Both the position numbers and the translations under genes were made by a program. A stretch of 64,000 nt of DNA, taken from Pseudosulfitobacter pseudonitzschiae. GTDB taxonomy: Bacteria > Pseudomonadota > Alphaproteobacteria > Rhodobacterales > Rhodobacteraceae. Positions 32,421 through 44,947 of this stretch are shown here, piece after piece; position 1 is the stretch's first letter; every line of letters starts with the position of its first letter. The notes beneath the pieces are model-generated. The model was not told the DNA's origin. It saw nothing but the letters and a program-made list of their open reading frames with translations, and ran no database searches. The stretch covers positions 310,001 to 374,000 of the forward strand of contig NZ_CP022416.1 in NCBI RefSeq assembly GCF_002222635.1. The letters run 5' to 3'.

Positions 32421-34049
32421 ATGCTCATTCATCGCCGCCACGCACTTGGACTTATTGGGGCCGCTGCGGGCTCTTTGGCAATGCCCCGTCTGTCCTTCGC
32501 ACAAAACCAGCGCCGCACCATCACCATTGCGGTGCAAAAGATCACCAACAACAACACGATGGATGTATGGAACGAACAATCCAACGTCGGCGAACGGGTG
32601 TTTTTCCCGAACCTTTGGGAAGGTCTGATCAACCGCGACTGGATGGGCGATCAGGGCGGTGTGCCCGGACTGGCGACAAGCTGGAAGCGGCTGGATGACA
32701 AAACGATCGAACTTAAGCTGCGCGAAGGTGTGAAATTTCACAACGGCGACGAAATGACCGCCGACGATGTGGTGTTTTCATTCTCGGACGAACGCGTCTT
32801 TGCAGGCACGCAACCCGATGGCGGCGCAACGCTTTATGCGGAAAACTTCAAACCCAAAACCGACAAAGAACTGCCCGCTGGTGTCCCCGGTGTTGGCCGT
32901 CGTCTGTGGCCCGCCCTTCGCGGTGTCGAGGCGATAGACAAATACACCGTGCGCTTTCACAACGCATCGCCCGACGTCACCCTCGAAGGCCGGATGATCG
33001 CCTTCGGGTCGCAAATTGCCAGCCGTCGTGCGTGGGACGAAGCGGCGACCTATGCGGATTGGGCAAATGCTCCGGTCACCACCGGCGCTTACAAGGTTCA
33101 GGAATATCGCCCAGATGTTTCGTTGACGCTGGTCGCACACGATGACTATTGGGGCGGGCGCCCGCCGCTGGCGGAAATCCGGTTCCTCGAAGTGCCCGAA
33201 GTGGCCAGCCGCGTGAACGGTCTGCTGTCCGGTGAATATGACTTTGCCTGCGACCTGCCACCCGACCAGCTTGACGCCGTGCGCAACACCGCAGGGCTCG
33301 AGGTGCAAGGTTCGACAATTCTGAACCACCGCATTCAGGTTTTTGACAAGGTGCATCCGGTTCTGGAAGATCCGCTGATCCGCCGCGCCATGACCCATTC
33401 CATCGACCGCCAATTGATCGTCAACGCATTGTGGGACGGTCAAACCGTCGTGCCCGCAGGGCTTCAGTTCGAATTCTACGATGATATGTTCATCAAGGGC
33501 TGGACTGCCCCCGAATTCAATCTGGAAATGGCGCGCGATCTGGTGAAACAGTCGGGCTATCAGGGCGATGCGATCCCCTTCCGCGTACTGAACAACTATT
33601 ACATCAATCAGGTCTCGAACGCGCAGATCATGGTCGAGATGTGGAAACAGGCCGGTCTGAACGTCGAAATCCAGATGGTCGAGAACTGGGGGCAGGTGTT
33701 GGAAGACAACGACACCCGCGGCATCCGCGACTGGTCGAATTCGGCCACGTTCAACGATCCGGTATCGTCGATTGTCGCCCAGCACGGTCCCAACGGGTTG
33801 CAGCAGCAGCGCGACGAATGGTCCAACGTCGAGATGAACGAGTTGTCGAACTTCATGCAAAAATCGACAGACCGTGCCGCCCGCAAAAAGGCCTTTGCCC
33901 GTATGCTGGAAATCTCGGAGCGTGAAGACCCCGCATTTCAGGTGCTGCACCAGAACTGCGTGTTCACCGGCATGAAATCCGAACTGAACTGGAAGGCGGC
34001 ACCCGCCTTTGCGATGGATTTCCGGACCAACAACTGGAACGCCTCCTAA
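32421..34049 (+). CDS. ABC transporter periplasmic binding protein, oligopeptide family 5, Tat-exported
   Basis: A 542-residue solute-binding protein with an N-terminal twin-arginine leader (HRRHALGLIGAAAG, cleavage near SFAQ). The SBP_bac_5 fold shows in LWEGLINRD, LKLREGVKFHNGDEMTADDVVFSF, VTTGAYKVQEYRPD and the C-terminal FNDPVSSIVAQHGPNG. Family members bind peptides, opines, nickel or glycosides, so the ligand is open. The downstream phosphodiesterase, phosphatase and isomerase genes argue for a phosphodiester sugar rather than a peptide. AAAGG lies eight bases before ATG. Confidence 0.9.
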   Translation: MLIHRRHALGLIGAAAGSLAMPRLSFAQNQRRTITIAVQKITNNNTMDVWNEQSNVGERVFFPNLWEGLINRDWMGDQGGVPGLATSWKRLDDKTIELKLREGVKFHNGDEMTADDVVFSFSDERVFAGTQPDGGATLYAENFKPKTDKELPAGVPGVGRRLWPALRGVEAIDKYTVRFHNASPDVTLEGRMIAFGSQIASRRAWDEAATYADWANAPVTTGAYKVQEYRPDVSLTLVAHDDYWGGRPPLAEIRFLEVPEVASRVNGLLSGEYDFACDLPPDQLDAVRNTAGLEVQGSTILNHRIQVFDKVHPVLEDPLIRRAMTHSIDRQLIVNALWDGQTVVPAGLQFEFYDDMFIKGWTAPEFNLEMARDLVKQSGYQGDAIPFRVLNNYYINQVSNAQIMVEMWKQAGLNVEIQMVENWGQVLEDNDTRGIRDWSNSATFNDPVSSIVAQHGPNGLQQQRDEWSNVEMNELSNFMQKSTDRAARKKAFARMLEISEREDPAFQVLHQNCVFTGMKSELNWKAAPAFAMDFRTNNWNAS

Positions 34050-34065
34050 CCCAAGCCTGACACCG

Positions 34066-34092
34066 ATGGCGCGGCGCATTGTGCCGCGCCAT
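34066..34092 (+). terminator. Hairpin between binding-protein and ATPase genes
   Basis: ATGGCGCGGC (34066-34075) and GCCGCGCCAT (34083-34092) form a perfect 10-bp GC-rich stem with a seven-base loop. It lies in the only sizeable gap of the operon. It probably protects or partly terminates the transcript so that the binding protein is made in excess. Confidence 0.6.
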
Positions 34093-34112
34093 TCGGTATT
34101 TGAAAGCGTGAT

Positions 34113-35105
34113 ATGTCTTTTGTTTCCATACGCGACCTGAAAGTTGCCTTTGACGGCGTTCAGGTCTTGCACGGTATCGACCTTGATGTTGCAGCAGGCG
34201 AGGCACTGGGGCTGGTGGGTGAATCCGGTTGCGGCAAATCAGTGACGTGGCTTGCCGCCTTGGGCCTGTTGCCGGGCAAGGCTACAGTGACCGGATCGGT
34301 GACCGTTCAGGGCCAGCAGCTGATCGGGGCCAACCGCACCGCCGTCGAAGCGGTGCGCGGGGGCCGGATCGCGATGATCTTTCAAGACCCTTCGTCGTCG
34401 CTGAACCCCGTCCGCACAGTGGGCCGCCAGATTTGCGAAAGCCTGCGTCTGCATCGCGGCATGGACCGCAGCGCCGCCCATACAGAAGCAGTACGGCTGC
34501 TGGACATGGTCGGAATTCCCGATGCGCGCAAACGGGTGGACCTGTACCCGCATGAATTTTCCGGTGGGCAATGCCAGCGCGTGATGATCGCAATGGCACT
34601 GGCGGGTGCCCCCGATCTGCTGATCGCGGACGAGCCGACAACAGCGCTGGACGCCACCATTCAGGCGCAGATTCTTGATCTGCTGGCGATGCTGCGGCGC
34701 GAAACCGGCATGGCGATGGTGTTCATCAGCCATGACCTCGGTGCGGTCGGTGCGATCTGTGACCGCGTCCATGTGATGTATGCAGGCCAGATCGTTGAAA
34801 GCGGCGCAATCGGTCCGATGTTCGACACGCCACGCCACCCCTATACCCGTGGGCTGTTCGATGCGATTCCGCGATTGGACGGCACGCGCAACCGGCTGAT
34901 CCCGATCCACGGCACCGTGCCCGACCCGCGCCACATGCCCAGCGGGTGCGCCTTTGCCCCACGCTGCCCCAAGGCGTCGGCATTCTGCAACAGCGCCGAA
35001 CCTGCGCTGAAACCACAAAAAGACGACAGGCAACTGGCCTGTTTCTATCCTGTCACCGCGTCCCCCGCCGGTGCTGATACCCCCACCGAAAGGTTGCCGG
35101 CATGA
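34113..35105 (+). CDS. ABC transporter ATPase, DppD/OppD type
   Basis: A 330-residue nucleotide-binding subunit. Walker A is GESGCGKSVTW near residue 37, the signature is FSGGQCQRVMIAM near residue 150 (with F for the usual L), and Walker B with the D-loop is LLIADEPTTALD near residue 171. The C-terminal oligopeptide-ABC domain has MPSGCAFAPRCPKASAFC, whose cysteines bind an Fe-S cluster in relatives. It overlaps the next ATPase by ATGA. Confidence 0.93.
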   Translation: MSFVSIRDLKVAFDGVQVLHGIDLDVAAGEALGLVGESGCGKSVTWLAALGLLPGKATVTGSVTVQGQQLIGANRTAVEAVRGGRIAMIFQDPSSSLNPVRTVGRQICESLRLHRGMDRSAAHTEAVRLLDMVGIPDARKRVDLYPHEFSGGQCQRVMIAMALAGAPDLLIADEPTTALDATIQAQILDLLAMLRRETGMAMVFISHDLGAVGAICDRVHVMYAGQIVESGAIGPMFDTPRHPYTRGLFDAIPRLDGTRNRLIPIHGTVPDPRHMPSGCAFAPRCPKASAFCNSAEPALKPQKDDRQLACFYPVTASPAGADTPTERLPA

Positions 35106-36085
35106 ACGCTTTGCTACAGGCACGCGGGCTGGTCCGTTGCTATGAAGGCCAGAAAACCCTGTTCAAACAGGCCACTTCGGTGCGGGCGGTCGATGGTGTC
35201 GACCTGACATTGCAGGCGGGCGAAACATTGGGAATCGTGGGCGAAAGCGGCTCGGGCAAATCCACGTTGGGCCGGATGCTGTTGGGCATTGATGCGCCAA
35301 CGGCAGGGCAGGTCACCTTTGACGGGCAACCAATGCCCGACCTGCAAAGCGCTGCATGGCGTGCCCTGCGCGCACAGATGCAGTTTATCTATCAGGATCC
35401 CCTCGCGGCGCTGGACCGGCGGCTGACCATCGCCCGCCAGATCGGAGAACCGCTGGAGATTCACGGGCTTGCCAAAGGGGCCGAACTGCACGAACGGGTC
35501 GCGGACCTGATGGCGCAGGTGGGTCTGCGTCAGGATCAGGGCGCACGGTATCCGCACGAGCTTTCTGGCGGGCAGCGCCAGCGGGTGATCATTGCCCGTG
35601 CATTGGCCACGTCTCCACGGCTGCTGGTCTGCGACGAGCCTGTGTCGGCGCTGGATGTGTCTATTCAGGCGCAGGTGGTGAACCTGCTGCGCGATCTTCA
35701 GGAAAGCCACGGCATCGCCATGGTGTTCATCAGCCACGACCTGAAAGTCGTGCGCAACATCTGTGACCGTGTCGCGGTCATGTACCTTGGCCGCATCGTG
35801 GAAGAGGCCTCCTCGGACGAGATTTTCGCCCGTCCCGCGCATCCCTATACTCAGGCGTTGGTGTCGTCGGTGCCAGTGCCGGGCAAACGGCTTGAGGGGC
35901 GTATCCTATTGAAGGGCGAACCGCCAAACCCCGCACAGCGCCCCTCAGGTTGCGCGTTCCATCCGCGTTGCACAGCAGCCGTGCCCGCATGTGCCGCAAC
36001 TGTTCCATTGCTTCAGCCCGTGGCACCAGCGCGACGTGCGGCCTGTCATCTGCTGGCCACGCCCTGTGCGGAACAGGCGGCGTGA
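35102..36085 (+). CDS. ABC transporter ATPase, DppF/OppF type
   Basis: A 327-residue partner ATPase. Walker A is GESGSGKSTLGRMLLG, the signature is LSGGQRQRVIIARAL and Walker B is LLVCDEPVSALD; the C-terminal PSGCAFHPRC is again of oligopeptide type. A heterodimer with the preceding ATPase is expected. It begins in the ATGA overlap. Confidence 0.93.
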   Translation: MNALLQARGLVRCYEGQKTLFKQATSVRAVDGVDLTLQAGETLGIVGESGSGKSTLGRMLLGIDAPTAGQVTFDGQPMPDLQSAAWRALRAQMQFIYQDPLAALDRRLTIARQIGEPLEIHGLAKGAELHERVADLMAQVGLRQDQGARYPHELSGGQRQRVIIARALATSPRLLVCDEPVSALDVSIQAQVVNLLRDLQESHGIAMVFISHDLKVVRNICDRVAVMYLGRIVEEASSDEIFARPAHPYTQALVSSVPVPGKRLEGRILLKGEPPNPAQRPSGCAFHPRCTAAVPACAATVPLLQPVAPARRAACHLLATPCAEQAA

Positions 36086-36116
36086 TGGCCCGCCGTATGA
36101 ACCGGAAAGCTCCGAC

Positions 36117-37046
36117 ATGCTAAGCTATTTTCTGACCCGCCTGTTTCGTGCGGCGCTGACCATCCTTCTGGTGATGACCTTTGCCTTTGTCGTTTTGCGG
36201 CTGTCGGGTGATCCCGCGTCGATCCTGCTGGGGCCGGATGCTCCAACCGACAGCATAGATGCGTTCCGCGCCGAATGGGGCTTGGACGATCCGTTGTGGA
36301 AACAGTATTTCGCCTATTTGCGTTCCATTGCCCAACTGGATTTCGGCGTGTCCATGCGTGACCGGTCTTCGGCAATTGAACTGGTGCTGCAACGGGTGCC
36401 CGCTACGCTGGCGTTAACGGTGCCGACGCTGATCATCCAGCTGGGTATCGGCATTCCCGCAGGTGTCTATGCGGCGCTGCACCGTGAATCGGTGGCCGAT
36501 CGCGGGGTGATCATGCTGTCGATCTTCGGCTTTACCATCCCGTCCTTTGTCATGGGGCTGGTGCTGGTGCTGATCTTTGCCGTCACGCTGGGCTGGCTGC
36601 CGTCGGGCGGTCAGGACAGTTGGCACCATGCGATCCTGCCCATCGCCACCATGTCCGTCGGCGGGATCGGTATCCTTGCGCGGTTCTCACGTTCGGCGAT
36701 GATCGAGGTCATGGGACAGCCCTATATCCGCACGGCGATGGCCAAGGGGCTGAGCTGGCGCGATGTGGTCTGGAAACACGCGCTGCCCAATGCCTCGGTG
36801 CCGATTGTCACCATTGTCGGCTTTATGGTCGGGTCGCTGATCGCGGGGGCCGTGGTGGTCGAAAGCATCTTCTCGTGGCCCGGCATCGGCAGACTGCTGA
36901 TCGTGTCGGTGTCGAACAGGGATCTGGCGGTGGTGCAATGCCTGCTGCTGATGATCGCCTCGACGATGGTCATCGCAAACCTGTGTGTCGATTTCGCCTA
37001 TGGCCTGCTGGACCCGCGTCTGCGGTCCAAAGCCACAGCGCACTAA
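36117..37046 (+). CDS. ABC transporter permease, DppB/OppB type
   Basis: A 309-residue membrane protein with six predicted spans. N-terminal YFLTRLFRAALTILLVMTFAF and the LGPDAPTDSIDAFRAEWGLDDPLW stretch after the first helix are typical of DppB. The coupling helix with RTAMAKGLSWRDVVWKHALPN lies near residue 205. Start 36117 is set by homology (MLSYFLTR) and a GGAAAG site; a longer frame reading back into the ATPase gene is not real. Confidence 0.92.
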   Translation: MLSYFLTRLFRAALTILLVMTFAFVVLRLSGDPASILLGPDAPTDSIDAFRAEWGLDDPLWKQYFAYLRSIAQLDFGVSMRDRSSAIELVLQRVPATLALTVPTLIIQLGIGIPAGVYAALHRESVADRGVIMLSIFGFTIPSFVMGLVLVLIFAVTLGWLPSGGQDSWHHAILPIATMSVGGIGILARFSRSAMIEVMGQPYIRTAMAKGLSWRDVVWKHALPNASVPIVTIVGFMVGSLIAGAVVVESIFSWPGIGRLLIVSVSNRDLAVVQCLLLMIASTMVIANLCVDFAYGLLDPRLRSKATAH

Positions 37047-37056
37047 GGAGACGGAT

Positions 37057-37923
37057 ATGACCGCACAGGCAACCGACATCGCATCCGCACCCCGCATGAT
37101 CAGACGGCTGCGGTTCAAGGCACCCTTGCTGGTCATGTTCGGGCTGGCGTGGCTGGGGCTGATGGTGATCACGGCAGTGTTTGCCGATGTCATCCGCCCC
37201 TATGACGTGACGCAAATGGACCTGTCCGCCCGACTGGTCGGCCCGCTGACCCAAGGCCACCTGTTGGGCACCGACGAATTGGGCCGTGATGTGCTGTCAC
37301 GCCTGATCCAGTCGATCCGCGTGTCGCTGGTCATCGCCTTTGGCGCGACGCTGTTGTCGGCGTTCTTTGGCACCACATTGGGGTTTCTGGCGGCACAGTT
37401 CCGCGGTGTGGTCGAACATCTGATCCTCGTGCTGGCCGATTTTCAGGCGGCATTGCCCTTTCTGATCCTGTCGCTGGCGGTGCTGGCGTTTTTCGGGTCG
37501 TCCATGACGCTGCTGGTCGGCCTGATGGGGTTTTACGGGTGGGAACGCTATGCCCGCATTGCGCGCGGTCTGGCGATCTCAGCGGGCGCGCAGGGTTATG
37601 CCTCGGCGGTGGTTCAACTGGGGGCAAAACCGTCGCGGGTCTATCTGCGGCACATCCTGCCCAATGTCGCCTCGACACTGATCGTGTCGATGACCCTGAC
37701 CTTTCCCGAAATCATCCTGATGGAAAGCGGTCTGTCCTTTCTGGGTCTGGGCGTTCAGCCCCCCGAAAGCTCGCTGGGCAATATGGTGGGCTTTGGCCGC
37801 GAATATCTGACCCGCGCGCCTTGGATCATGCTGGGGCCTGCCTTTGTCATCATGATGACTACGTTGTCGATCTCGCTGGTCGGGGACTGGCTGCGCGACA
37901 AACTTGACCCGACAATCCGTTAA
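37057..37923 (+). CDS. ABC transporter permease, DppC/OppC type
   Basis: A 288-residue partner permease with six spans. It contains GTDELGRDVLSRLIQSIRVSL near residue 68 (hallmark of DppC) and the coupling segment near VYLRHILPNVASTLIVS. AAGGAG five bases before ATG 37057 fixes the start. The TAA is followed after 15 bases by the phosphodiesterase gene. Confidence 0.92.
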   Translation: MTAQATDIASAPRMIRRLRFKAPLLVMFGLAWLGLMVITAVFADVIRPYDVTQMDLSARLVGPLTQGHLLGTDELGRDVLSRLIQSIRVSLVIAFGATLLSAFFGTTLGFLAAQFRGVVEHLILVLADFQAALPFLILSLAVLAFFGSSMTLLVGLMGFYGWERYARIARGLAISAGAQGYASAVVQLGAKPSRVYLRHILPNVASTLIVSMTLTFPEIILMESGLSFLGLGVQPPESSLGNMVGFGREYLTRAPWIMLGPAFVIMMTTLSISLVGDWLRDKLDPTIR

Positions 37924-37938
37924 CAAAGGACGTTTTGC

Positions 37939-38697
37939 GTGACCAAAATCATCGCCCACCGTGGTGCCCGCAATTTGTGGGCAGAAAATTCGCTTCAGGG
38001 GTTTCGCAACGTGCTGGCGCTTGGCGTTGGTGCAGTGGAATTCGATCTGCACCTTGGTGCAGGCGGCGAGGTTCTGGTGATCCACGATGCGACGCTGGAC
38101 CGCACCACAACGGGCACAGGGCCGGTGCGTGCATTGACAGACAACAGTCGCCACGCCGTGCGGCTGATCGGCCCCGATGGAGAAATCGACGAGGGTGTTC
38201 CGCTGTTGTCCGAAGTTCTAGACATTCTTGCGCCCGTTGCTGGTTTGCAAATCTATCCTGAAATCAAGGCAGATGAAAACGGCTACTATGATCCGACACT
38301 AGTTGCAGCCACGGTCGGGATGTTGCGTGCCTACGAGCTGGAAAGCCGTACGGTACTGCATAGTTTCGACACCGGTGTGCTGCGTTTGATCCGTGATACC
38401 GCGCCGGAATTCGCGCGCATGGTTTCAGTGAACGAAGATTGGATCAACCGTCAGGGCGGCGTGCAGACGTTCATTGCCGGATTGGGCGACCTTATTGGTG
38501 TCATGGCCGTACATCACGACCTGTTGGCACGTGAATTCGACAGCATCACGGCACGGCTGCCGTTGCAAAGGCTTGGCGTCTGGACGTTGAACGACCCCGA
38601 CCAGATTACGCGTTGGTTGCGCCGCGGGGTGGGATACCTGACCACAGATGACCCGCGACTGGCCCAAGAGATCATGGCACGGGAGATGGCGGCATGA
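37939..38697 (+). CDS. Glycerophosphodiester phosphodiesterase family enzyme (GDPD)
   Basis: A 252-residue TIM-barrel phosphodiesterase with a GTG start after AAAGGA. The catalytic and metal residues are in place: AHRGARNLWAENS at the start, EFDLHLGAGGEVLVIHDATLDRTTTGTG near residue 36, and YPEIKADE near residue 108. There is no signal peptide, so it acts in the cytoplasm on an imported phosphodiester. In the acc operon of Agrobacterium a GDPD-type enzyme (AccF) cuts agrocinopine in the same gene order. The true substrate here is unknown. Confidence 0.9.
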   Translation: MTKIIAHRGARNLWAENSLQGFRNVLALGVGAVEFDLHLGAGGEVLVIHDATLDRTTTGTGPVRALTDNSRHAVRLIGPDGEIDEGVPLLSEVLDILAPVAGLQIYPEIKADENGYYDPTLVAATVGMLRAYELESRTVLHSFDTGVLRLIRDTAPEFARMVSVNEDWINRQGGVQTFIAGLGDLIGVMAVHHDLLAREFDSITARLPLQRLGVWTLNDPDQITRWLRRGVGYLTTDDPRLAQEIMAREMAA

Positions 38698-39383
38698 GCA
38701 ATGTGGATCTGGTTATTTTCGACTGCGACGGAGTTCTGATCGACAGCGAGACGATAGGTGCCACCGCATTGGCCGGCGCGATCACCGATGCGGGCGTGCC
38801 AATGGCAGCGCTGGCGGCCGAACGCATGTTTTCGGGCGCGGGTTACGGCGAAACCTGTGCGTTGATAGAACGTTTGGGGCTGGCATCCGCGCCTGTCATC
38901 ATGGATGCCGATGCACGTATGTCGGCATTGTTCGACGATGGCGTGTCGCCGGTGCAGGGGATGCACAGTGTTCTGGCATCCCTGCAGGTTCCGATGTGCG
39001 TGGCCTCCAACAGCAGCGTGGCGCGGCTGGGCAACAGCCTTGGCCGCACGCCGCTTGCAGCCTTTTTCGGGCCGCATATCTACAGCGCCGACCATGTGCA
39101 GCACAGCAAGCCGGCGCCGGATCTGGCGTTGCATTGTCTGGCGCAGATGAAAACCGCCGCAGAACGCGCTGTGTTCGTCGACGACAATACCCACGGCATC
39201 CGGTGCGCACGGGCGGCTGGCGTGATGGCCATCGGCTTTGTCGGGCCAACCGACCACCGTGCGGGCCATGCCGACAGGCTGCGGGCGGCGGGGGCCGATC
39301 ATGTGGCTCACGGCGCCCGCGCCCTACAAGAGCTGCTGGCCCGGTTGACACAGCGCACCGTCGAAGACGTTGCCACAATCTGA
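38694..39383 (+). CDS. HAD-superfamily phosphatase (subfamily IA)
   Basis: A 229-residue phosphatase, overlapping the GDPD gene by ATGA. Motif I is FDCDGVLIDSE (D10 and D12), motif II ASNSS, the lysine motif QHSKPAPDL and motif IV FVDDN. A small alpha-helical cap fits beta-phosphoglucomutase-like and sugar-phosphate phosphatases. It would remove phosphate from the sugar phosphate released by the preceding enzyme. In the acc operon AccG plays this part with another fold. Confidence 0.88.
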   Translation: MSNVDLVIFDCDGVLIDSETIGATALAGAITDAGVPMAALAAERMFSGAGYGETCALIERLGLASAPVIMDADARMSALFDDGVSPVQGMHSVLASLQVPMCVASNSSVARLGNSLGRTPLAAFFGPHIYSADHVQHSKPAPDLALHCLAQMKTAAERAVFVDDNTHGIRCARAAGVMAIGFVGPTDHRAGHADRLRAAGADHVAHGARALQELLARLTQRTVEDVATI

Positions 39384-39417
39384 CTTTCCCCTTTCCCCAA
39401 CCCTCAAGGAATACACC

Positions 39418-40242
39418 ATGACCGACCTTCCGCTGCTGGGTGTCGCCATTCCGACGACCACGCTCGAGACGCTTCAGGATTTCATCCTGTCCGAAAACCG
39501 CGATCTGGAAATTCAGGATTTCTGCGATGCCGACCTGCTGAACGGCGACTGGAAAACGGTCGCTGACCACGCCCGCACCCTGCTGACGGGCTATACCGGA
39601 CGATTGGGCATCCACGGCCCGTTCTGGGGGCTGAACATCGCCAGCCCCGACACCGAAATGCGCGCGCTGAACCGGCGCAAGCATTTGCAGGGCATAGAAG
39701 TTTGCGAACATCTGGGGGCCACGCAGATGGTCATCCACAGCCCCTATACCACATGGAGCTATAACAATCTCGACAACGCGCCCGAGCGCAAGGAATACGA
39801 CCGGCTGTTGGAAAACTGCCATGACACGATGGACGAAGTGGTAAAACGCGCCGAAGATTGCGGCGTGACAATGGTGATCGAGAACATCGAGGACATCGAC
39901 CCCGATATCCGCTGCGCGCTGGCCGACAGCTTTAGTTCGCCCGCGATGGCCGTGTCGATCGACACCGGTCACGCGCATTACGCCCACGGCACCAACGGTG
40001 CGGCTCCGGTTGACTACTACGTGCGCCGCGCGGCCAACCGGTTGCAGCACATCCACCTGCAAGATGCCGACGGCTATGCCGACCGTCATTGGGCGATCGG
40101 AGAGGGAACCATTCGCTGGGAATCCGTCTTTCGTGCCCTGGGCGAGTTTGACAGCAACCCGCGCCTGATACTGGAACTGCGCGACAAGGCAGGCATTTTG
40201 CCATCCGTCGCCTATCTGCAATCGCTGGGGCTTGCCCGCTGA
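39418..40242 (+). CDS. Sugar phosphate isomerase/epimerase-like TIM-barrel protein
   Basis: A 274-residue AP-endonuclease-2/xylose-isomerase-like barrel. Metal and substrate positions include HGPFWGLNI, VIHSPYTTW, MVIENIEDI, SIDTGHAHY, HIHLQDADG and LILELRDK. Start 39418 follows AAGGAAT; the frame upstream to 39370 is a shadow of the previous gene. It is the last gene of the operon and would isomerise or epimerise the freed sugar. Exact reaction unknown. Confidence 0.83.
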   Translation: MTDLPLLGVAIPTTTLETLQDFILSENRDLEIQDFCDADLLNGDWKTVADHARTLLTGYTGRLGIHGPFWGLNIASPDTEMRALNRRKHLQGIEVCEHLGATQMVIHSPYTTWSYNNLDNAPERKEYDRLLENCHDTMDEVVKRAEDCGVTMVIENIEDIDPDIRCALADSFSSPAMAVSIDTGHAHYAHGTNGAAPVDYYVRRAANRLQHIHLQDADGYADRHWAIGEGTIRWESVFRALGEFDSNPRLILELRDKAGILPSVAYLQSLGLAR

Positions 40243-40250
40243 TAGCAGAC

Positions 40251-40286
40251 AGCTGAACCCTTGGGCAATGGCTCAGGGGTTCAGCT
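40251..40286. terminator. Strong bidirectional hairpin overlapping the thiX stop codon
   Basis: The left arm (40251-40266, AGCTGAACCCTTGGGC) pairs with 40271-40286 over 16 positions, 14 Watson-Crick and two G-T, around an AATG loop. The thiX stop (40273-40275) is inside the right arm. It separates two convergent operons that end only 30 bases apart. There is no T-run. Confidence 0.7.
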
Positions 40287-41028
40287 CCGCCGCACCCGTG
40301 GCATAGCGCGTCAGACGGTCGGCCAGATGGCCCACAGTGATGTGCAGCGCCACGGTCAGCACTGCCAACACGATCAGGCTGGCAAACATCAGGTCGATCT
40401 TGGCGCGGCCATTGGCCAGCAGCATCAAATAACCCAACCCTTTCGACGCGCCCACCCATTCACCGATCACCGCCCCGATCGGCGCATAGACTGCCGCCAG
40501 CTTCAGCCCTGTGCCCAGACCGGGCAGGGCGTTGGGAATTTGCACGTGACGCATGAACCTGTATTTGCCCGCGCCCATCGTCACCGCCAGATCGCGCAGG
40601 CCCTGATCAACACGCGTCAGCCCGTCGTGAAATGCTGCCGTGACCGGAAAATAGATGATCAGCACCGCCATCACGACCTTGGACCCCATGCCGTAACCGA
40701 ACCAAAGCGTCAGCAGTGGCGCCAGCGCAAAGACAGGGACCGCTTGGGTAAAGACCAGAACGGGCAGCAACAACCGCTCAGCCGTTTTTGACAGCGCCAG
40801 TTGGATCGCGGTAACCACGCCCAGCAGCGTGCCCAGCACCAGACCCAGCAGCACTTCGATGGCGGTGACACTGGCGTTTTCGGCAATGACCGCACGGCTG
40901 TGGTATGCCGCCTGTGCCACCCGCCACGGCGCTGGCAGGATAAAGTGCGGCGCACCCGTCAGCATCACCAGCCCCTGCCACGACGCCAACCCCAGCAGCA
41001 CCGCCAGTGCTATGTCGCGCGCCCTCAT
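40273..41028 (-). CDS. thiX: ABC permease for thiamine pyrimidine precursors, ThiX
   Basis: A 251-residue inner-membrane permease with about six spans, of the nitrate/taurine/NMT1 class. HFILPAPWRVAQA near the N-terminus and the coupling motif MGAGKYRFMRHVQIPNALP near residue 155 are typical. It is the last gene of a ten-gene thiamine operon and forms the HMP-type importer with ThiZ and ThiY. Start overlaps the ThiZ stop by ATGA. Confidence 0.88.
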   Translation of the reverse strand: MRARDIALAVLLGLASWQGLVMLTGAPHFILPAPWRVAQAAYHSRAVIAENASVTAIEVLLGLVLGTLLGVVTAIQLALSKTAERLLLPVLVFTQAVPVFALAPLLTLWFGYGMGSKVVMAVLIIYFPVTAAFHDGLTRVDQGLRDLAVTMGAGKYRFMRHVQIPNALPGLGTGLKLAAVYAPIGAVIGEWVGASKGLGYLMLLANGRAKIDLMFASLIVLAVLTVALHITVGHLADRLTRYATGAAELNP

Positions 41029-41747
41029 GCCGCCGCCCGCAGGTGCGCCAGCAGACGGGTCTGACAGTCAAAGGTGCGTGGGTCGTCAATGGCCCGCAGA
41101 GCAGGGGTGTCGGGCACCGGCCAGATGCTGGTCTGTCGTGCAGTCATGACAATAATCTGGTCCGCCAGGCGGGTCGCCTCGGACGGGTCGTGGGTGACCA
41201 GCAGCACGGTACGGCCCTGCAAAACCTCGGCGGCCAGTTCCTGCATATCGGCGCGGGTGCCTGCGTCCAGCGCCGAAAACGGCTCGTCCAGCAAAACCAG
41301 CGGACGGTTTTCGAACAGCGTGCGGGCCAGCGCGGTGCGCTGGCGCATGCCGCCCGACAGCATGTGGGGCCGCTTGTCCGCATGGGACAGCAACCCGACA
41401 CGGTCCAACAGCCTGCGCGCCCGCGCCACATCCGCCTGCGCCCCGCGCAGACGTGCACCGATCAACACGTTTTCCAGCGCAGACAGCCACGGCAACAACA
41501 GGTCCGACTGCGCCATATAGCTGATACGCCCCTGCAAAGGCTTGCCATCGGTCGCCGTCACCGTACCGGTAAACCGCCCGCCCGTTTCCAACCCCGGTAT
41601 CAGCCGCAGGACGGTGGATTTTCCCACACCCGATCGCCCCAACAAACAGGTCCACCGCCCAGCGGGCAGGGTGATATCGGCGTCAAACAACAGGTGCCCA
41701 TTAATGCGGTGCTGGCCTGCGACCCTGATGCCAAAAGGTGCGGTCAT
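41025..41747 (-). CDS. thiZ: ABC ATPase for thiamine pyrimidine precursors, ThiZ
   Basis: A 240-residue ATPase. Walker A is LLGRSGVGKSTVLRLI, the signature MLSGGMRQRTALARTL (GG-M in place of GG-Q) and Walker B LVLLDEPFSALD. It powers ThiX. ATGA overlaps on both sides show translational coupling with tenA and thiX. Confidence 0.9.
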   Translation of the reverse strand: MTAPFGIRVAGQHRINGHLLFDADITLPAGRWTCLLGRSGVGKSTVLRLIPGLETGGRFTGTVTATDGKPLQGRISYMAQSDLLLPWLSALENVLIGARLRGAQADVARARRLLDRVGLLSHADKRPHMLSGGMRQRTALARTLFENRPLVLLDEPFSALDAGTRADMQELAAEVLQGRTVLLVTHDPSEATRLADQIIVMTARQTSIWPVPDTPALRAIDDPRTFDCQTRLLAHLRAAA

Positions 41748-42427
41748 GGGCCGGTCAGCCCCATCTGCCAGAACCCGACCTCTAGCGTGGTCGCCTTGGT
41801 AAAGCGGTCTTGTATGGCCTGTCTGCGCGGCGCGCTTGCCAGATCCCCGACACGCCGCGCCACTGCGGTGTCGATCATCGTGCCGACAGTGGTGCAGACC
41901 TGCTGGTAACCGGCATCGGCATAGGTATCGATCCAGTCAGCGTAGGGCGTATCGGCCGCGCGTTCCTGCGCCAGCCGCAGGCCGATCTCGCCATAGCCCA
42001 TCACGCAGGGCGCAAGTGCTGCCATCAGATCAAGAAAATCGCCCTGTGCGCCCGCGTCCATGACATAGCGGGTATAGGCCAGATTCTCGACTGCCTCGGG
42101 CGCGGTGAACAGGGCGTGTTCGTCGATGCCTGCGGCGGCACAGGTTTGCACATGCAACGACATCTCATGGTTGACCAGCGCATCGACAGTGCCCGCGCAC
42201 ACCTTCATTTCCCCAAGCGTTTCCGACTTGATCACACCCAGCGACCACGCCCGCGAGAAATGTACCAAAAACACGTAATCCTGTACCAGATAGCGCAGGA
42301 ACGCAGCGCGCGGCAGCGTGCCGTCGCTCAACCCCTGCACAAAGGCGTGGCGGGTATAATCGGCCCAGACACCCGCCGCACCCGCCCGCCACAGCGCAAA
42401 GGTTTTACCATAGTCAGGGGCCGTCAT
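41744..42427 (-). CDS. tenA: TenA-family thiaminase II / aminopyrimidine aminohydrolase
   Basis: A 227-residue all-helical enzyme that recovers HMP from degraded thiamine (aminomethylpyrimidine hydrolysis). The substrate pocket shows FLRYLVQDYVFLVHFSRAW and the nucleophile cysteine lies in ALAPCVMGYGEIG, so this is the TenA_C form. It sits between the genes for the importer parts ThiY and ThiZ, as expected for salvage of imported base-degraded thiamine. Confidence 0.92.
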   Translation of the reverse strand: MTAPDYGKTFALWRAGAAGVWADYTRHAFVQGLSDGTLPRAAFLRYLVQDYVFLVHFSRAWSLGVIKSETLGEMKVCAGTVDALVNHEMSLHVQTCAAAGIDEHALFTAPEAVENLAYTRYVMDAGAQGDFLDLMAALAPCVMGYGEIGLRLAQERAADTPYADWIDTYADAGYQQVCTTVGTMIDTAVARRVGDLASAPRRQAIQDRFTKATTLEVGFWQMGLTGP

Positions 42428-43362
42428 GGCGCAGTCACGTCGATGGTGATGCCGGACACCGGTGTCTGGTCGGGGACCAGTTGCGCGGCGTGCAGGAACG
42501 CCTCGAACGTGGCATAGCGGCCCACATCCATCGCCGCAGGGCGCAGCGCGAAACGGGGTATCGTGTCAGCCCAGGCGCGGGCATTCAATTCGTCGCGCAA
42601 TTCGGCGGATGTGGCTGCGAACACCTGCCAGCTTTCGTCGGGATGGTTGATAATGTACTGCGTCGCCTTTTCGGTCGCAGCCAGAAAGCGGGCGATCATA
42701 TCCGTATCCATCGTGTCGGAATTGGCCACATAGATCAGCTCGTCATAGGCGGGCAGGCCGTGTTCCTCGACGAAAAAGCATTTACCTTCAACGCCTTCTA
42801 TCTGCATCTGGTTCAGTTCAAAATTGCGATAGGCACCGATGACCGCATCGACCTGACCGGACATCAGCGACGGCGACAACGACCAGTTCACGTTGACCAT
42901 CTCGACCGCATCCACAGGCAGGCCGTTGTGGCGCAGGATCGCGCCCATCATCGCCTCTTCGACGCCACCCACGGAAAAGCCCACCTTTTTGCCCGCCAAA
43001 TCGGCAGGCGTCTTGATCGGACCATCGGCCAGCGTCAGCAGGCAGTTCAACGGCGTGGCAATCAACGTGCCGACACGCAGCAAAGGCAGACCTTCGTGGA
43101 TGTGCAGGTGCAGTTGCGGCTGGTACGAAACCGCCAGATCGGCCTTGCCTGCGGCGACCATCTTGGGCGGGTCGGACGGATCGGCGGGGGCGATGATGTT
43201 TACGTTCAGGTCTTGCGCGGCAAAGTACCCCATCTCTTGCGCCACGATGATCGGCCCGTGATCAGGGTTCACAAACCAGTCCAGCATCAGGGTCACATCG
43301 TCGGCAGCCATCAGCGGGGCAGCGGTCAGGGACAGTGCGGTCGTCAAAGCGGTCAGTTTCAT
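42424..43362 (-). CDS. thiY: Periplasmic binding protein for thiamine pyrimidine precursor, ThiY (NMT1/THI5-like)
   Basis: A 312-residue protein with signal peptide (cleavage near LMAADD). The NMT1 features are VTLMLDWFVNPDHGPIIVAQ, LNVNIIAPADPSDPPKMVAAGKADL and CFFVEEHGLPAYDELIYVA. ThiY of Bacillus binds formylaminopyrimidine, and the neighbouring TenA and ThiXZ support that ligand class. Start 43362 is chosen by the signal peptide and ATGA overlap with thiF; a longer frame lacks support. Confidence 0.9.
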   Translation of the reverse strand: MKLTALTTALSLTAAPLMAADDVTLMLDWFVNPDHGPIIVAQEMGYFAAQDLNVNIIAPADPSDPPKMVAAGKADLAVSYQPQLHLHIHEGLPLLRVGTLIATPLNCLLTLADGPIKTPADLAGKKVGFSVGGVEEAMMGAILRHNGLPVDAVEMVNVNWSLSPSLMSGQVDAVIGAYRNFELNQMQIEGVEGKCFFVEEHGLPAYDELIYVANSDTMDTDMIARFLAATEKATQYIINHPDESWQVFAATSAELRDELNARAWADTIPRFALRPAAMDVGRYATFEAFLHAAQLVPDQTPVSGITIDVTAP

Positions 43363-44354
43363 TTGTTGTGTCTTTCTGTCGGGGGCGTGTCGCCCGTTGC
43401 AATCAGGGAAATCTCTCCGGCCCAATGGGACCGAAGATGCGCCGCCGCTTGCCAGGCGCGCAGGCCCGAGCGGCAGGCGAAAACGGCGCGTTGGCCGTCC
43501 GGGGGCGTGGCGAGGTGTTGACGGTACTCTGCGACGGTGGTGCGCAGGGCTGCGGGTGTGACGGGCACGGGTGCGTCGACCCTATCGCGCAGTTCGACGA
43601 CGAAATCCTGCGCGGTCAAATCGCTTGGCGCGATAAAGGTCGGGCCGCCTTCAGGCTCCGGGGTTCCGTCGAAGCGAAAGCCGCTGGCGCGAAACCCCTG
43701 CATGTCGAAATGCATCAGCTGGCCCAGCGGTGACGGCCGTTGCCCGATCAGAATACCCAAGGCCATCTGCGCCATCGCCGCGCCGACCAGACCCACGACC
43801 GGCCCCATCACCCCCGCTGTGGCACAGGTTGCGGCACGGTCAGGCAGATCGGGAAACACGGCGCGCAGGGACGGGGCAGAGCCGCAGAACCCGCCCACAT
43901 AACCTGTAAACCCCAACACCGAGGCGCTGACCAGCGGCACACCCTGCGCATGGCAGGTGTCGGACAGAATATAGCTGGCGGCGAAGCTGTCGGCGCAGTC
44001 CAGAACAAGGGTCGAACGCGCGACAAGTTCTGCGGCATTCGCCGGATCAAGCGAGCAGGGCAGGGGCACCACGTCGCAATTGCCATTCAATCGCCGCAGG
44101 GTTTGCGCGGCCACATCAGCCTTGGTTCGACCCACGTCGTTTTCACGGAACAGGGTTTGCCGATGCAGGTTGGACAGCGCCACCACGTCACCATCCACAA
44201 GGGTCAGATGCCCCACACCCGCACCTGCCAGATATTGCAGGACAGGGGCGGCCAGCCCGCCCGCTCCCACCACCAACACGCGCGCGGCGGCGATGGCGCG
44301 TTGACCGGTTTCGCCCACTTCAGGCAGTTGCGTCTGGCGTGCATAGCGGTTCAT
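43359..44354 (-). CDS. thiF: ThiF/MoeB-type sulfur-carrier adenylyltransferase fused to a rhodanese-like domain
   Basis: A 331-residue E1-like enzyme that adenylates the ThiS C-terminal glycine. RVLVVGAGGLAAPVLQYLAGAG holds the nucleotide loop, TLVDGDVVALSNLHRQTLF the Mg region, and TCATAGVMGPVVG keeps the sulfide-linking cysteine. The two zinc CxxC motifs of ThiF/MoeB are gone: the first reads PSLRAVFP and the second is absent. The C-terminal 80 residues form a rhodanese-like domain with the cysteine loop FACRSGLRA. Start 44354 follows the ATGA overlap with thiE. Confidence 0.88.
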   Translation of the reverse strand: MNRYARQTQLPEVGETGQRAIAAARVLVVGAGGLAAPVLQYLAGAGVGHLTLVDGDVVALSNLHRQTLFRENDVGRTKADVAAQTLRRLNGNCDVVPLPCSLDPANAAELVARSTLVLDCADSFAASYILSDTCHAQGVPLVSASVLGFTGYVGGFCGSAPSLRAVFPDLPDRAATCATAGVMGPVVGLVGAAMAQMALGILIGQRPSPLGQLMHFDMQGFRASGFRFDGTPEPEGGPTFIAPSDLTAQDFVVELRDRVDAPVPVTPAALRTTVAEYRQHLATPPDGQRAVFACRSGLRAWQAAAHLRSHWAGEISLIATGDTPPTERHNK

Positions 44355-44947
44355 CTGGTCACCGCCAGCCACGCAGCAACGCGGTCTTCGGGGCTGTCGT
44401 TCAGGGTAATGTCGGTAACCGCAGACACTACATCGGCCCCAGCATCAAAGGCACCTGTGGCACGTTCAACCGACATGCCGCCGATGGCGACCAACGGCGT
44501 ACCCCCGATCAGATTGCGCCATGTGGTCAGTTTGGCCGTGCCCTGCTGATGCCATTTCATCTGTTTCAGGATTGTCGGATAAATCGGCCCAAGCGCGATG
44601 TAATCAGGCTCTAGCAAAATCGCACGGGCCAGTTCCGCCCGGTCATGGGTGCTGATACCCAGACGCAAACCCGCCGTGCGGATCGCGCCCAAGTCGGCGT
44701 CGTCCAGATCCTCCTGACCCAGATGCAGCCAGTCGCAACCGGTTTCGATGGCGATGCGCCAGTGATCGTTCAGCACCAGTGTGCAACCATGCTCGACACA
44801 GACGACCTGCGCGCGGCGTACATGCGCGCGGATCATGTCGGGGCTGGCGTCCTTGATGCGCAACTGCACCAGTTTGATGCCAAGTGGCACCAGCCGTTCG
44901 ATCCAGTCGGCGCGGTCGAAAATCGGGTAGAAACGGTCGAGGGTCAT
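44351..44947 (-). CDS. thiE: Thiamine phosphate synthase, ThiE
   Basis: A 198-residue TIM-barrel enzyme joining HMP-pyrophosphate and thiazole phosphate. [46 protein letters not shown] and PLVAIGGMS are the recognised stretches. It overlaps thiG and thiF by ATGA. Confidence 0.93.

What the first reader, a model, noticed from the sequence alone, without database searches (positions are those of the whole stretch)
32421..40242. acc-like operon: peptide-type importer plus phosphodiesterase, phosphatase and sugar isomerase
Eight same-strand genes encode a family 5 binding protein, two Dpp-type ATPases, two permeases, a signal-less GDPD enzyme, a HAD phosphatase and a sugar isomerase. In Agrobacterium the accABCDEFG operon has a family 5 binding protein with ABC parts, a GDPD-like AccF and a phosphatase AccG for agrocinopine, a sugar phosphodiester. 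The same logic here (import, split the diester, remove phosphate, isomerise the sugar) suggests a marine bacterium using opine-like or glycerophosphoglycoside compounds. The HAD phosphatase and isomerase differ from AccG, so the substrate is probably new.
Basis: partly seen in the sequence, partly recalled or inferred. Interest (0 to 1): 0.7.

Follow-up and report, generated by a model that had tools for sequence, protein, structure and literature searches.

The report
AccA-type phosphodiester uptake operon
A marine bacterium carries an eight-gene operon that most likely imports an unknown small phosphate diester with a relative of Agrobacterium's opine-binding protein and breaks it down inside the cell, and similar systems occur in soil and marine relatives under peptide-transporter names.

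Summary
The eight same-strand genes at 32421-40242 are real. AccA is the binding protein's nearest solved relative by far (E 2e-81; next 3e-28). Four AccA residues that touch the phosphate (N54, Y375, Y376, S419) are kept in 80 of 80 orthologous loci; sugar contacts change (E510 to F in 80 of 80). In a class-wide set, 24 of 28 binding proteins with this clamp lie within 7.5 kb of a phosphoesterase gene, against 1 of 5 without it and 2 of 22 generic family 5 proteins. The phosphoesterase type varies. So phosphodiester import is well supported; opine use is not: the GDPD is 22% identical to the AccF homologue, the AccG position holds another phosphatase family, and the pocket does not match pyranose-2-phosphate. 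The 'sugar isomerase' keeps nine endonuclease IV metal ligands (30 of 30), hinting at a phosphoester hydrolase, but its predicted fold matches epimerase-like proteins best, so its function is open. A sister GDPD-HAD pair stands beside a UgpB-like importer and a pentulose kinase, pointing to a glycerol, polyol or sugar diester. New variant of a known kind; no ligand or activity was tested.

The parts
32421..34049 (+). Family 5 solute-binding protein of the AccA group; RR pair at residues 5-6 suggests a twin-arginine leader (motif recalled)
   Evidence: Pfam SBP_bac_5; AccA best in PDB by sequence and by Foldseek (model pLDDT only 66.8); N55, Y393, Y394, S439 and hinge N302 = AccA N54, Y375, Y376, S419, N284; R5 R6 invariant in 21 sequences
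34113..35105 (+). ABC ATPase, Opp/Dpp type
   Evidence: Pfam ABC_tran, oligo_HPY
35102..36085 (+). ABC ATPase, Opp/Dpp type
   Evidence: Pfam ABC_tran, oligo_HPY
36114..37046 (+). ABC permease 1
   Evidence: Pfam BPD_transp_1
37057..37923 (+). ABC permease 2
   Evidence: Pfam BPD_transp_1, OppC_N
37939..38697 (+). GDPD-family phosphodiesterase without a leader, so presumably cytoplasmic
   Evidence: Pfam GDPD over cut-off; HRG, ENS, E-x-D and HD motifs invariant in the window and 8 relatives
38694..39383 (+). HAD-IA phosphatase
   Evidence: Pfam HAD_2; DxD motif FDCDGVLIDSE; in the 80-locus survey seen only where GDPD is present (31 of 61 vs 0 of 19)
39418..40242 (+). AP_endonuc_2 TIM barrel, annotated in relatives as sugar phosphate isomerase/epimerase; candidate phosphoester hydrolase
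   Evidence: Pfam; nine endonuclease IV metal ligands kept; AlphaFold2 pLDDT 90.8; nearest folds 3wqo, 3ayv, then epimerases

Best explanation
It is an uptake and breakdown operon for a small phosphodiester. The periplasmic AccA-type protein grips the ligand mainly by its phosphate (N55, Y393, Y394, S439) and by a hinge asparagine; the organic part sits in a pocket that differs from AccA's. The Opp-type ABC transporter brings the intact diester in. The GDPD splits it into an alcohol and a phosphomonoester, and the HAD phosphatase removes the phosphate from the monoester. The TIM barrel either cleaves the same or a related phosphoester or processes the freed sugar or polyol. The most likely ligand class is a glycerol, polyol or sugar diester. 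Shown by computation: kinship, conserved clamp, association with phosphoesterase genes. Inferred: every enzymatic step, the direction of transport and the ligand.
For: AccA is the nearest solved protein by sequence (E 2.3e-81; the first non-AccA-like chain 2.9e-28) and by fold (ranks 1-11 all AccA). Clamp residues as given in PMC4526662 section 8: N54, Y375, Y376, S419 in 80 of 80 loci, N284 in 79 of 80; E. coli OppA, DppA and NikA each lack the set. Phosphoesterase within 7.5 kb: 24 of 28 clamp-positive SBPs (22 of 28 by profile alone, 2 more in L205 by Pfam), 1 of 5 clamp-negative, 2 of 22 generic family 5 SBPs, none of which has the clamp. All 80 orthologous loci carry at least one of GDPD, TIM, TIM2 or PehA. 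The GDPDs beside AccA-type importers are of different lineages (identities near 20%), as expected if the type of ligand rather than one inherited enzyme is the constant. A sister GDPD and HAD occur in R. johnstonii pRL9 with a UgpB-like SBP and an FGGY pentulose kinase.
Against: No ligand, binding or activity is known. Four clamp-positive SBPs of 28 (L185, two in L194, and L211 on a 5.3 kb contig) have no phosphoesterase found nearby, and one counted case (L186) has it only at 7.2 kb. Clamp-negative L195 and, outside that set, L038 and L138 have one. Loci without a profile hit were looked at with Pfam (L185, L194, L205), the control regions were not. The 28 and the 22 were not matched for genus and share ancestry; independent-pair tests on the SBP tree do not reach significance. 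The SBP model is of low confidence. HAD is missing from 49 of 80 loci.
Confidence: 0.7

Rival explanations
1. A true agrocinopine-like system: the ligand is a pyranose-2-phosphate diester, as in Agrobacterium.
For: AccA-type SBP, same gene order as the acc-type operon L136; hinge N284 kept.
Against: E510, one of four residues that anchor the sugar OH1, is F in 80 of 80 orthologues; M372, E434, W178 and W423 are changed. The GDPD is not close to the AccF homologue (22%) and no AccG-type gene is in the operon.
Confidence: 0.12
2. An ordinary glycerophosphodiester scavenging system like UgpBAEC-UgpQ, with an Opp-type importer in place of Ugp; TIM is a sugar or polyol epimerase acting after dephosphorylation.
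For: GDPD family; sister GDPD and HAD beside a UgpB-like SBP with SDR and pentulose kinase; the TIM model matches epimerase-like proteins and epimerases best.
Against: TIM keeps nine metal ligands, of which the D-tagatose 3-epimerase aligned lacks counterparts of three (H107, D222, H224); 0 of 9 loci with TIM as the only enzyme found have HAD.
Confidence: 0.35
3. A peptide or nickel importer whose neighbours GDPD, HAD and TIM are unrelated passengers.
For: Characterised family 5 SBPs mostly carry peptides or nickel (names).
Against: Clamp and phosphoesterase association; the same gene set in distant genera.
Confidence: 0.05

Closest known systems
Agrobacterium acc operon (AccA-AccG)
   Same: SBP family, transporter type, gene order SBP-ATPase-ATPase-permease-permease-GDPD-phosphatase; phosphate-contacting residues
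   Different: 35% SBP identity to AccA; GDPD 22% to the AccF homologue; HAD instead of inositol-monophosphatase type; extra TIM barrel; changed sugar pocket; no regulator gene inside the operon
UgpBAEC-UgpQ
   Same: importer plus cytoplasmic GDPD (Ugp recalled)
   Different: Ugp is a CUT1 (carbohydrate) importer (PMC12718374, passages), here a family 5 importer; HAD and TIM added. A mixed case (UgpB-like SBP with a sister GDPD and HAD) exists on pRL9
Endonuclease IV / CbiR
   Same: AP_endonuc_2 superfamily; nine metal ligands of E. coli Nfo kept; CbiR is the top NCBIfam hit, below cut-off
   Different: 27% identity to Nfo; Endo IV is not among the 50 listed folds; function not tested
Xanthosan system AvrBs2-XanT-XanP (PMC12807533, passages read)
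   Same: a sugar phosphodiester taken up as food and split by a phosphodiesterase
   Different: TonB-dependent transporter and 2H phosphoesterase; different protein families

Membership tests
AccA-type binding proteins | closest to AccA by sequence and fold among solved proteins | tested here: met
AccA-type binding proteins | phosphate contacts N54, Y375, Y376, S419 | tested here: met
AccA-type binding proteins | pyranose-side contacts and gate E510, W178, W423, M372, E434 | tested here: not met
   changed throughout the 80 orthologous loci
AccA-type binding proteins | binds pyranose-2-phosphate | not testable with these tools
   needs a binding assay
acc operon | GDPD close to AccF | tested here: not met
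   22% identity to the L136 homologue; nearer to pRL9 and Deinococcus GDPDs, 38% (tree weakly supported)
acc operon | AccG-type (inositol monophosphatase family) phosphatase | tested here: not met
   HAD instead
GDPD phosphodiesterases | family profile and conserved motifs | tested here: met
Endonuclease IV-like metallohydrolases | nine ligands of the three-metal site | tested here: met
   30 of 30 TIM sequences; eight aligned with Nfo, the ninth (H69); metal role of the positions recalled
Endonuclease IV-like metallohydrolases | fold nearest to Endo IV | tested here: not met
   listed top folds are 3wqo, 3ayv/3ayt, then epimerases
Sugar isomerases/epimerases of AP_endonuc_2 | over a curated family cut-off | tested here: not met
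   below the cut-off of all seven NCBIfam models matched
Sugar isomerases/epimerases of AP_endonuc_2 | isomerase activity | not testable with these tools
   needs an assay

The most novel reading that the evidence does not exclude
The AccA group is a third family of organophosphate importers beside the Phn and Ugp types, recognisable by an N-Y-Y-S phosphate clamp and hidden under peptide/nickel names across Alphaproteobacteria, and its partner TIM barrels (TIM and TIM2, only remotely alike) are two new small-molecule phosphodiesterase families of the endonuclease IV superfamily mislabelled as sugar isomerases.
Probability: 0.4. Interest if true: 0.75.

Novelty: new variant of a known kind. Interest (0 to 1): 0.52.

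Why it matters
Phosphodiesters are an important and poorly tracked part of organic phosphorus in soil and sea. If the clamp reading holds, a set of importers now called peptide or nickel transporters can be re-read from sequence as phosphodiester importers, each next to the enzyme that opens its ligand, which makes their ligands testable. It would also show that Agrobacterium's opine uptake shares a root with a wider nutrient system found in marine bacteria and root symbionts. The TIM barrel would test whether a common 'sugar isomerase' label hides phosphoesterases.

Tried and rejected
First I took TIM as a stand-in for GDPD because it was present in 11 of 12 loci lacking GDPD and PehA and in 18 of 68 others (Fisher 3e-5). 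A later search found a second AP_endonuc_2-like protein (TIM2) in 33 of 80 loci, never together with TIM. With TIM2 counted, most GDPD loci have a TIM-type gene too (49 of 61), so that test no longer shows replacement of GDPD. Also, 5 of the 9 genomes whose importer locus has TIM alone hold a 42-43% identical GDPD elsewhere (the two inspected lie near SorC-type and HAD genes, one also near UgpB, UgpA and UgpE homologues); the other 4 (L106, L117, L131, L134) have only weak GDPD matches, best E 1e-6 to 1e-11. I lowered the claim to an open question.

Pho box: no good site upstream of the window SBP (9 of 14 letters, as in shuffles); in 81 upstream stretches 10 score 11 or more against 1.8 expected (single-base shuffles, gene starts estimated). 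Not used as evidence.

Phylogeny: fewest changes on the SBP tree were GDPD 6, TIM 8, TIM2 10, HAD 14, PehA 2; independent-pair sign tests had median p 0.25 (TIM vs TIM2; GDPD vs HAD) and 0.625 (GDPD vs TIM) (quick tree).

The count over all 64 rows (55 clamp-positive, 51 with phosphoesterase; 9 negative, 3 with) is partly circular because some of those loci trained the profiles; I rely on L184-L213 and the control. HAD hits were not counted as phosphoesterases. Gene calls in loci are open frames found by my script, not annotations, and enzyme presence is by score thresholds.

Paper searches (nine of ten allowed) listed no title or abstract start that describes AccA-type importers as phosphodiester importers outside agrobacteria, or this operon. 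I saw listings only for most; PMC10745273 (opine genes in grapevine gall bacteria) was listed and not opened. Most subscription papers are not held.
Full report
What is there. Eight genes lie on the + strand with short gaps or 4-base overlaps, and Pfam confirms each domain. The GDPD starts at a GTG with no leader. The SBP has an RR pair at residues 5-6 that is invariant in 21 aligned sequences, consistent with a twin-arginine leader (motif recalled). The window lies in a 428 kb contig of a 5.1 Mb genome; the nearest named locus is Sulfitobacter sp. 20_GPM-1509m, 97% identical over the SBP.

AccA kinship. Against all PDB chains the SBP's seven best distinct sequences are AccA entries or (8cke) an entry named only as a substrate-binding protein that aligns in the same way (E 2.3e-81 to 6.7e-78); the next is at 2.9e-28. 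Foldseek with the predicted model ranks AccA chains 1 to 11 (to E 2.0e-36), then falls to 2.5e-28, although the model is poor (pLDDT 66.8). The 2015 AccA paper (PMC4526662; outline, passages and sections 8, 12 and 15 read) lists the contacts: N54 and S419 touch sugar and phosphate, Y375 and Y376 hold the phosphate, N284 and E510 help anchor the sugar OH1. Residue 504, given there as Glu, is Trp in the chain by my offset of 28; the other twelve checked positions match.

What is kept and what is changed. In the window SBP N54, N284, Y375, Y376 and S419 are kept, and over 80 orthologous loci they read N 80, N 79, Y 80, Y 80, S 80. E510 is F in 80 of 80, M372 is L in 80, E434 is Q in 79, and W178 and W423 are W in none. 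So the phosphate grip is AccA's but the sugar pocket is not. E. coli OppA, DppA and NikA lack the set.

Does the clamp predict a phosphoester? A search of 385 genomes of the class listed 36 places in 26 genomes. I fetched 30 regions holding 33 of these SBPs, leaving out the two of the own genome and one already held (L154, which has the clamp and TIM 33 bases away), and scored profiles of phosphoesterases. Of 28 SBPs with all four clamp residues, 24 have a phosphoesterase gene within 7.5 kb on either strand (22 by profile, two in L205 by a Pfam Metallophos match; L186 only at 7.2 kb). Of 5 without the clamp, 1 has. As a control I took 20 of the family 5 matches listed; the 20 regions hold 22 SBPs, none with the clamp, 2 with a metallophosphoesterase nearby. 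Controls were not re-checked with Pfam. The partner varies: GDPD, alkaline-phosphatase-type, calcineurin-like, type I phosphodiesterase. The first set was chosen by similarity to the window SBP and the control by PF00496 score in mostly the same family, so they are not matched.

The orthologous group. The one scan of named genomes returned 80 loci, its limit. Where the contig allows, the five importer genes stand together; within the fetched stretch are GDPD in 61, HAD in 31, TIM in 29, PehA in 7 and a calcineurin-like enzyme in 2, and TIM2, a second AP_endonuc_2-like protein, in 33. All 80 have at least one of GDPD, TIM, TIM2, PehA. HAD occurs in 31 of 61 loci with GDPD and 0 of 19 without. 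In the order, 16 of 292 genomes have an SBP match at E 1e-60 or better, ten of them (own genome included) at 67% identity or more, so the operon is patchy.

Not an acc operon by descent. A plasmid of Agrobacterium leguminum (L136) carries the acc-type operon: SBP 76% identical to AccA, then ATPase, ATPase, permease, permease, GDPD, inositol-monophosphatase-family gene. The window has the same order up to GDPD, but its GDPD is 22% identical to that one and 38% identical to the GDPD of R. johnstonii pRL9. GDPDs beside AccA-type importers fall in at least three groups with identities near 20% between groups. Repeated partnership with different phosphodiesterases fits a common type of ligand rather than one inherited pathway.

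Ligand class. On pRL9 the sister GDPD and a HAD 42% identical to the window's stand behind a UgpB-like SBP (E 1e-102, below the equivalog cut-off), with an SDR and an FGGY pentulose kinase over its cut-off. A SorC-type sugar-binding regulator is near 35 of 80 loci of the group, four of them by weak matches of 26-27%. This points to a glycerol, polyol or sugar diester. It is inference. Marine organophosphate importers known to me from a paper are of the Phn and CUT1 (UgpB) types (PMC12718374, abstract and passages; PMC10132767, passages); the passages do not mention the AccA type.

The TIM barrel. In relatives it is annotated as sugar phosphate isomerase/epimerase or, in Marinibacterium, endonuclease IV. 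Against E. coli Nfo it keeps H109, E145, D179, H182, H216, D229, H231 and E261 and H69 (where H216 and E261 of Nfo are not in register); metal roles are recalled. In the window these are H66, H107, E155, D182, H185, H213, D222, H224 and E253 counted from the ATG at 39418. All nine are invariant in 30 of 30 TIM sequences, and TIM2 has the same nine (one in 32 of 33). The D-tagatose 3-epimerase aligned lacks counterparts of three. CbiR, named a phosphodiesterase by NCBI (PMC7733943, passages), is the top NCBIfam hit for TIM and TIM2, below cut-off. TIM relatives of 45-49% sit near phosphonate-type importer genes in L047, L050, L149 and L150 and near a DUF1045 gene in L151; others do not: L049 and L051 (41-44%) lie with sugar-type importers, L152 and L153 (59-60%) with neither. 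Against a hydrolase: the confident model (pLDDT 90.8) matches 3wqo and TTHB071 (3ayv, 3ayt) first and then epimerases; Endo IV is not among the 50 listed. TTHB071 is described in one passage only as similar to AP endonucleases (PMC3084264). I give a phosphoester hydrolase about even odds.

Verdict. The AccA link is strong, the phosphodiester logic is well supported, the opine reading is not, and the isomerase label is open.

Noticed in passing
L042 (own genome, C1:1500302-1519735): A second, distant AccA-type SBP (four clamp residues kept, N284 is L) lies with two calcineurin-like phosphoesterases and a HAD gene.
   Followed up: partly
L149 (own genome, C6:66000-85500): A TIM paralogue (45%) lies between two phosphonate-type importers, with an MFS gene and an amidohydrolase-3 gene. 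A similar set is in L150.
   Followed up: partly
L057:17502-18416 and 32 other loci: TIM2, a CbiR-like protein with no PDB relative at E 0.001, never co-occurs with TIM in 80 loci.
   Followed up: partly
L054:2427-11990 (R. johnstonii pRL9): UgpB-like importer, GDPD, HAD, SDR, FGGY pentulose kinase and a sugar-binding regulator in one cluster: looks like use of a glycerophospho-pentitol or similar.
   Followed up: partly
L027 and L138: AccA-type SBPs beside an alkaline-phosphatase-family gene and C-P lyase genes (Mesorhizobium pMLa), and beside a PEP-mutase-family gene (Bradyrhizobium p184): possible phosphonate-ester uptake.
   Followed up: no
window 40273-44372, - strand: Next to the operon, an ABC permease and ATPase with genes that read like TenA, a THI5-type binding protein and ThiF: probably thiamine precursor uptake (only the permease was scanned). 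In R. sophoriradicis L023 thiamine synthesis genes also follow the operon; probably coincidence.
   Followed up: no
upstream of SBP in L106, L117, L121, L122, L133, L135: Sites resembling a Pho box (11-13 of 14 letters) in several loci, not in the window.
   Followed up: partly
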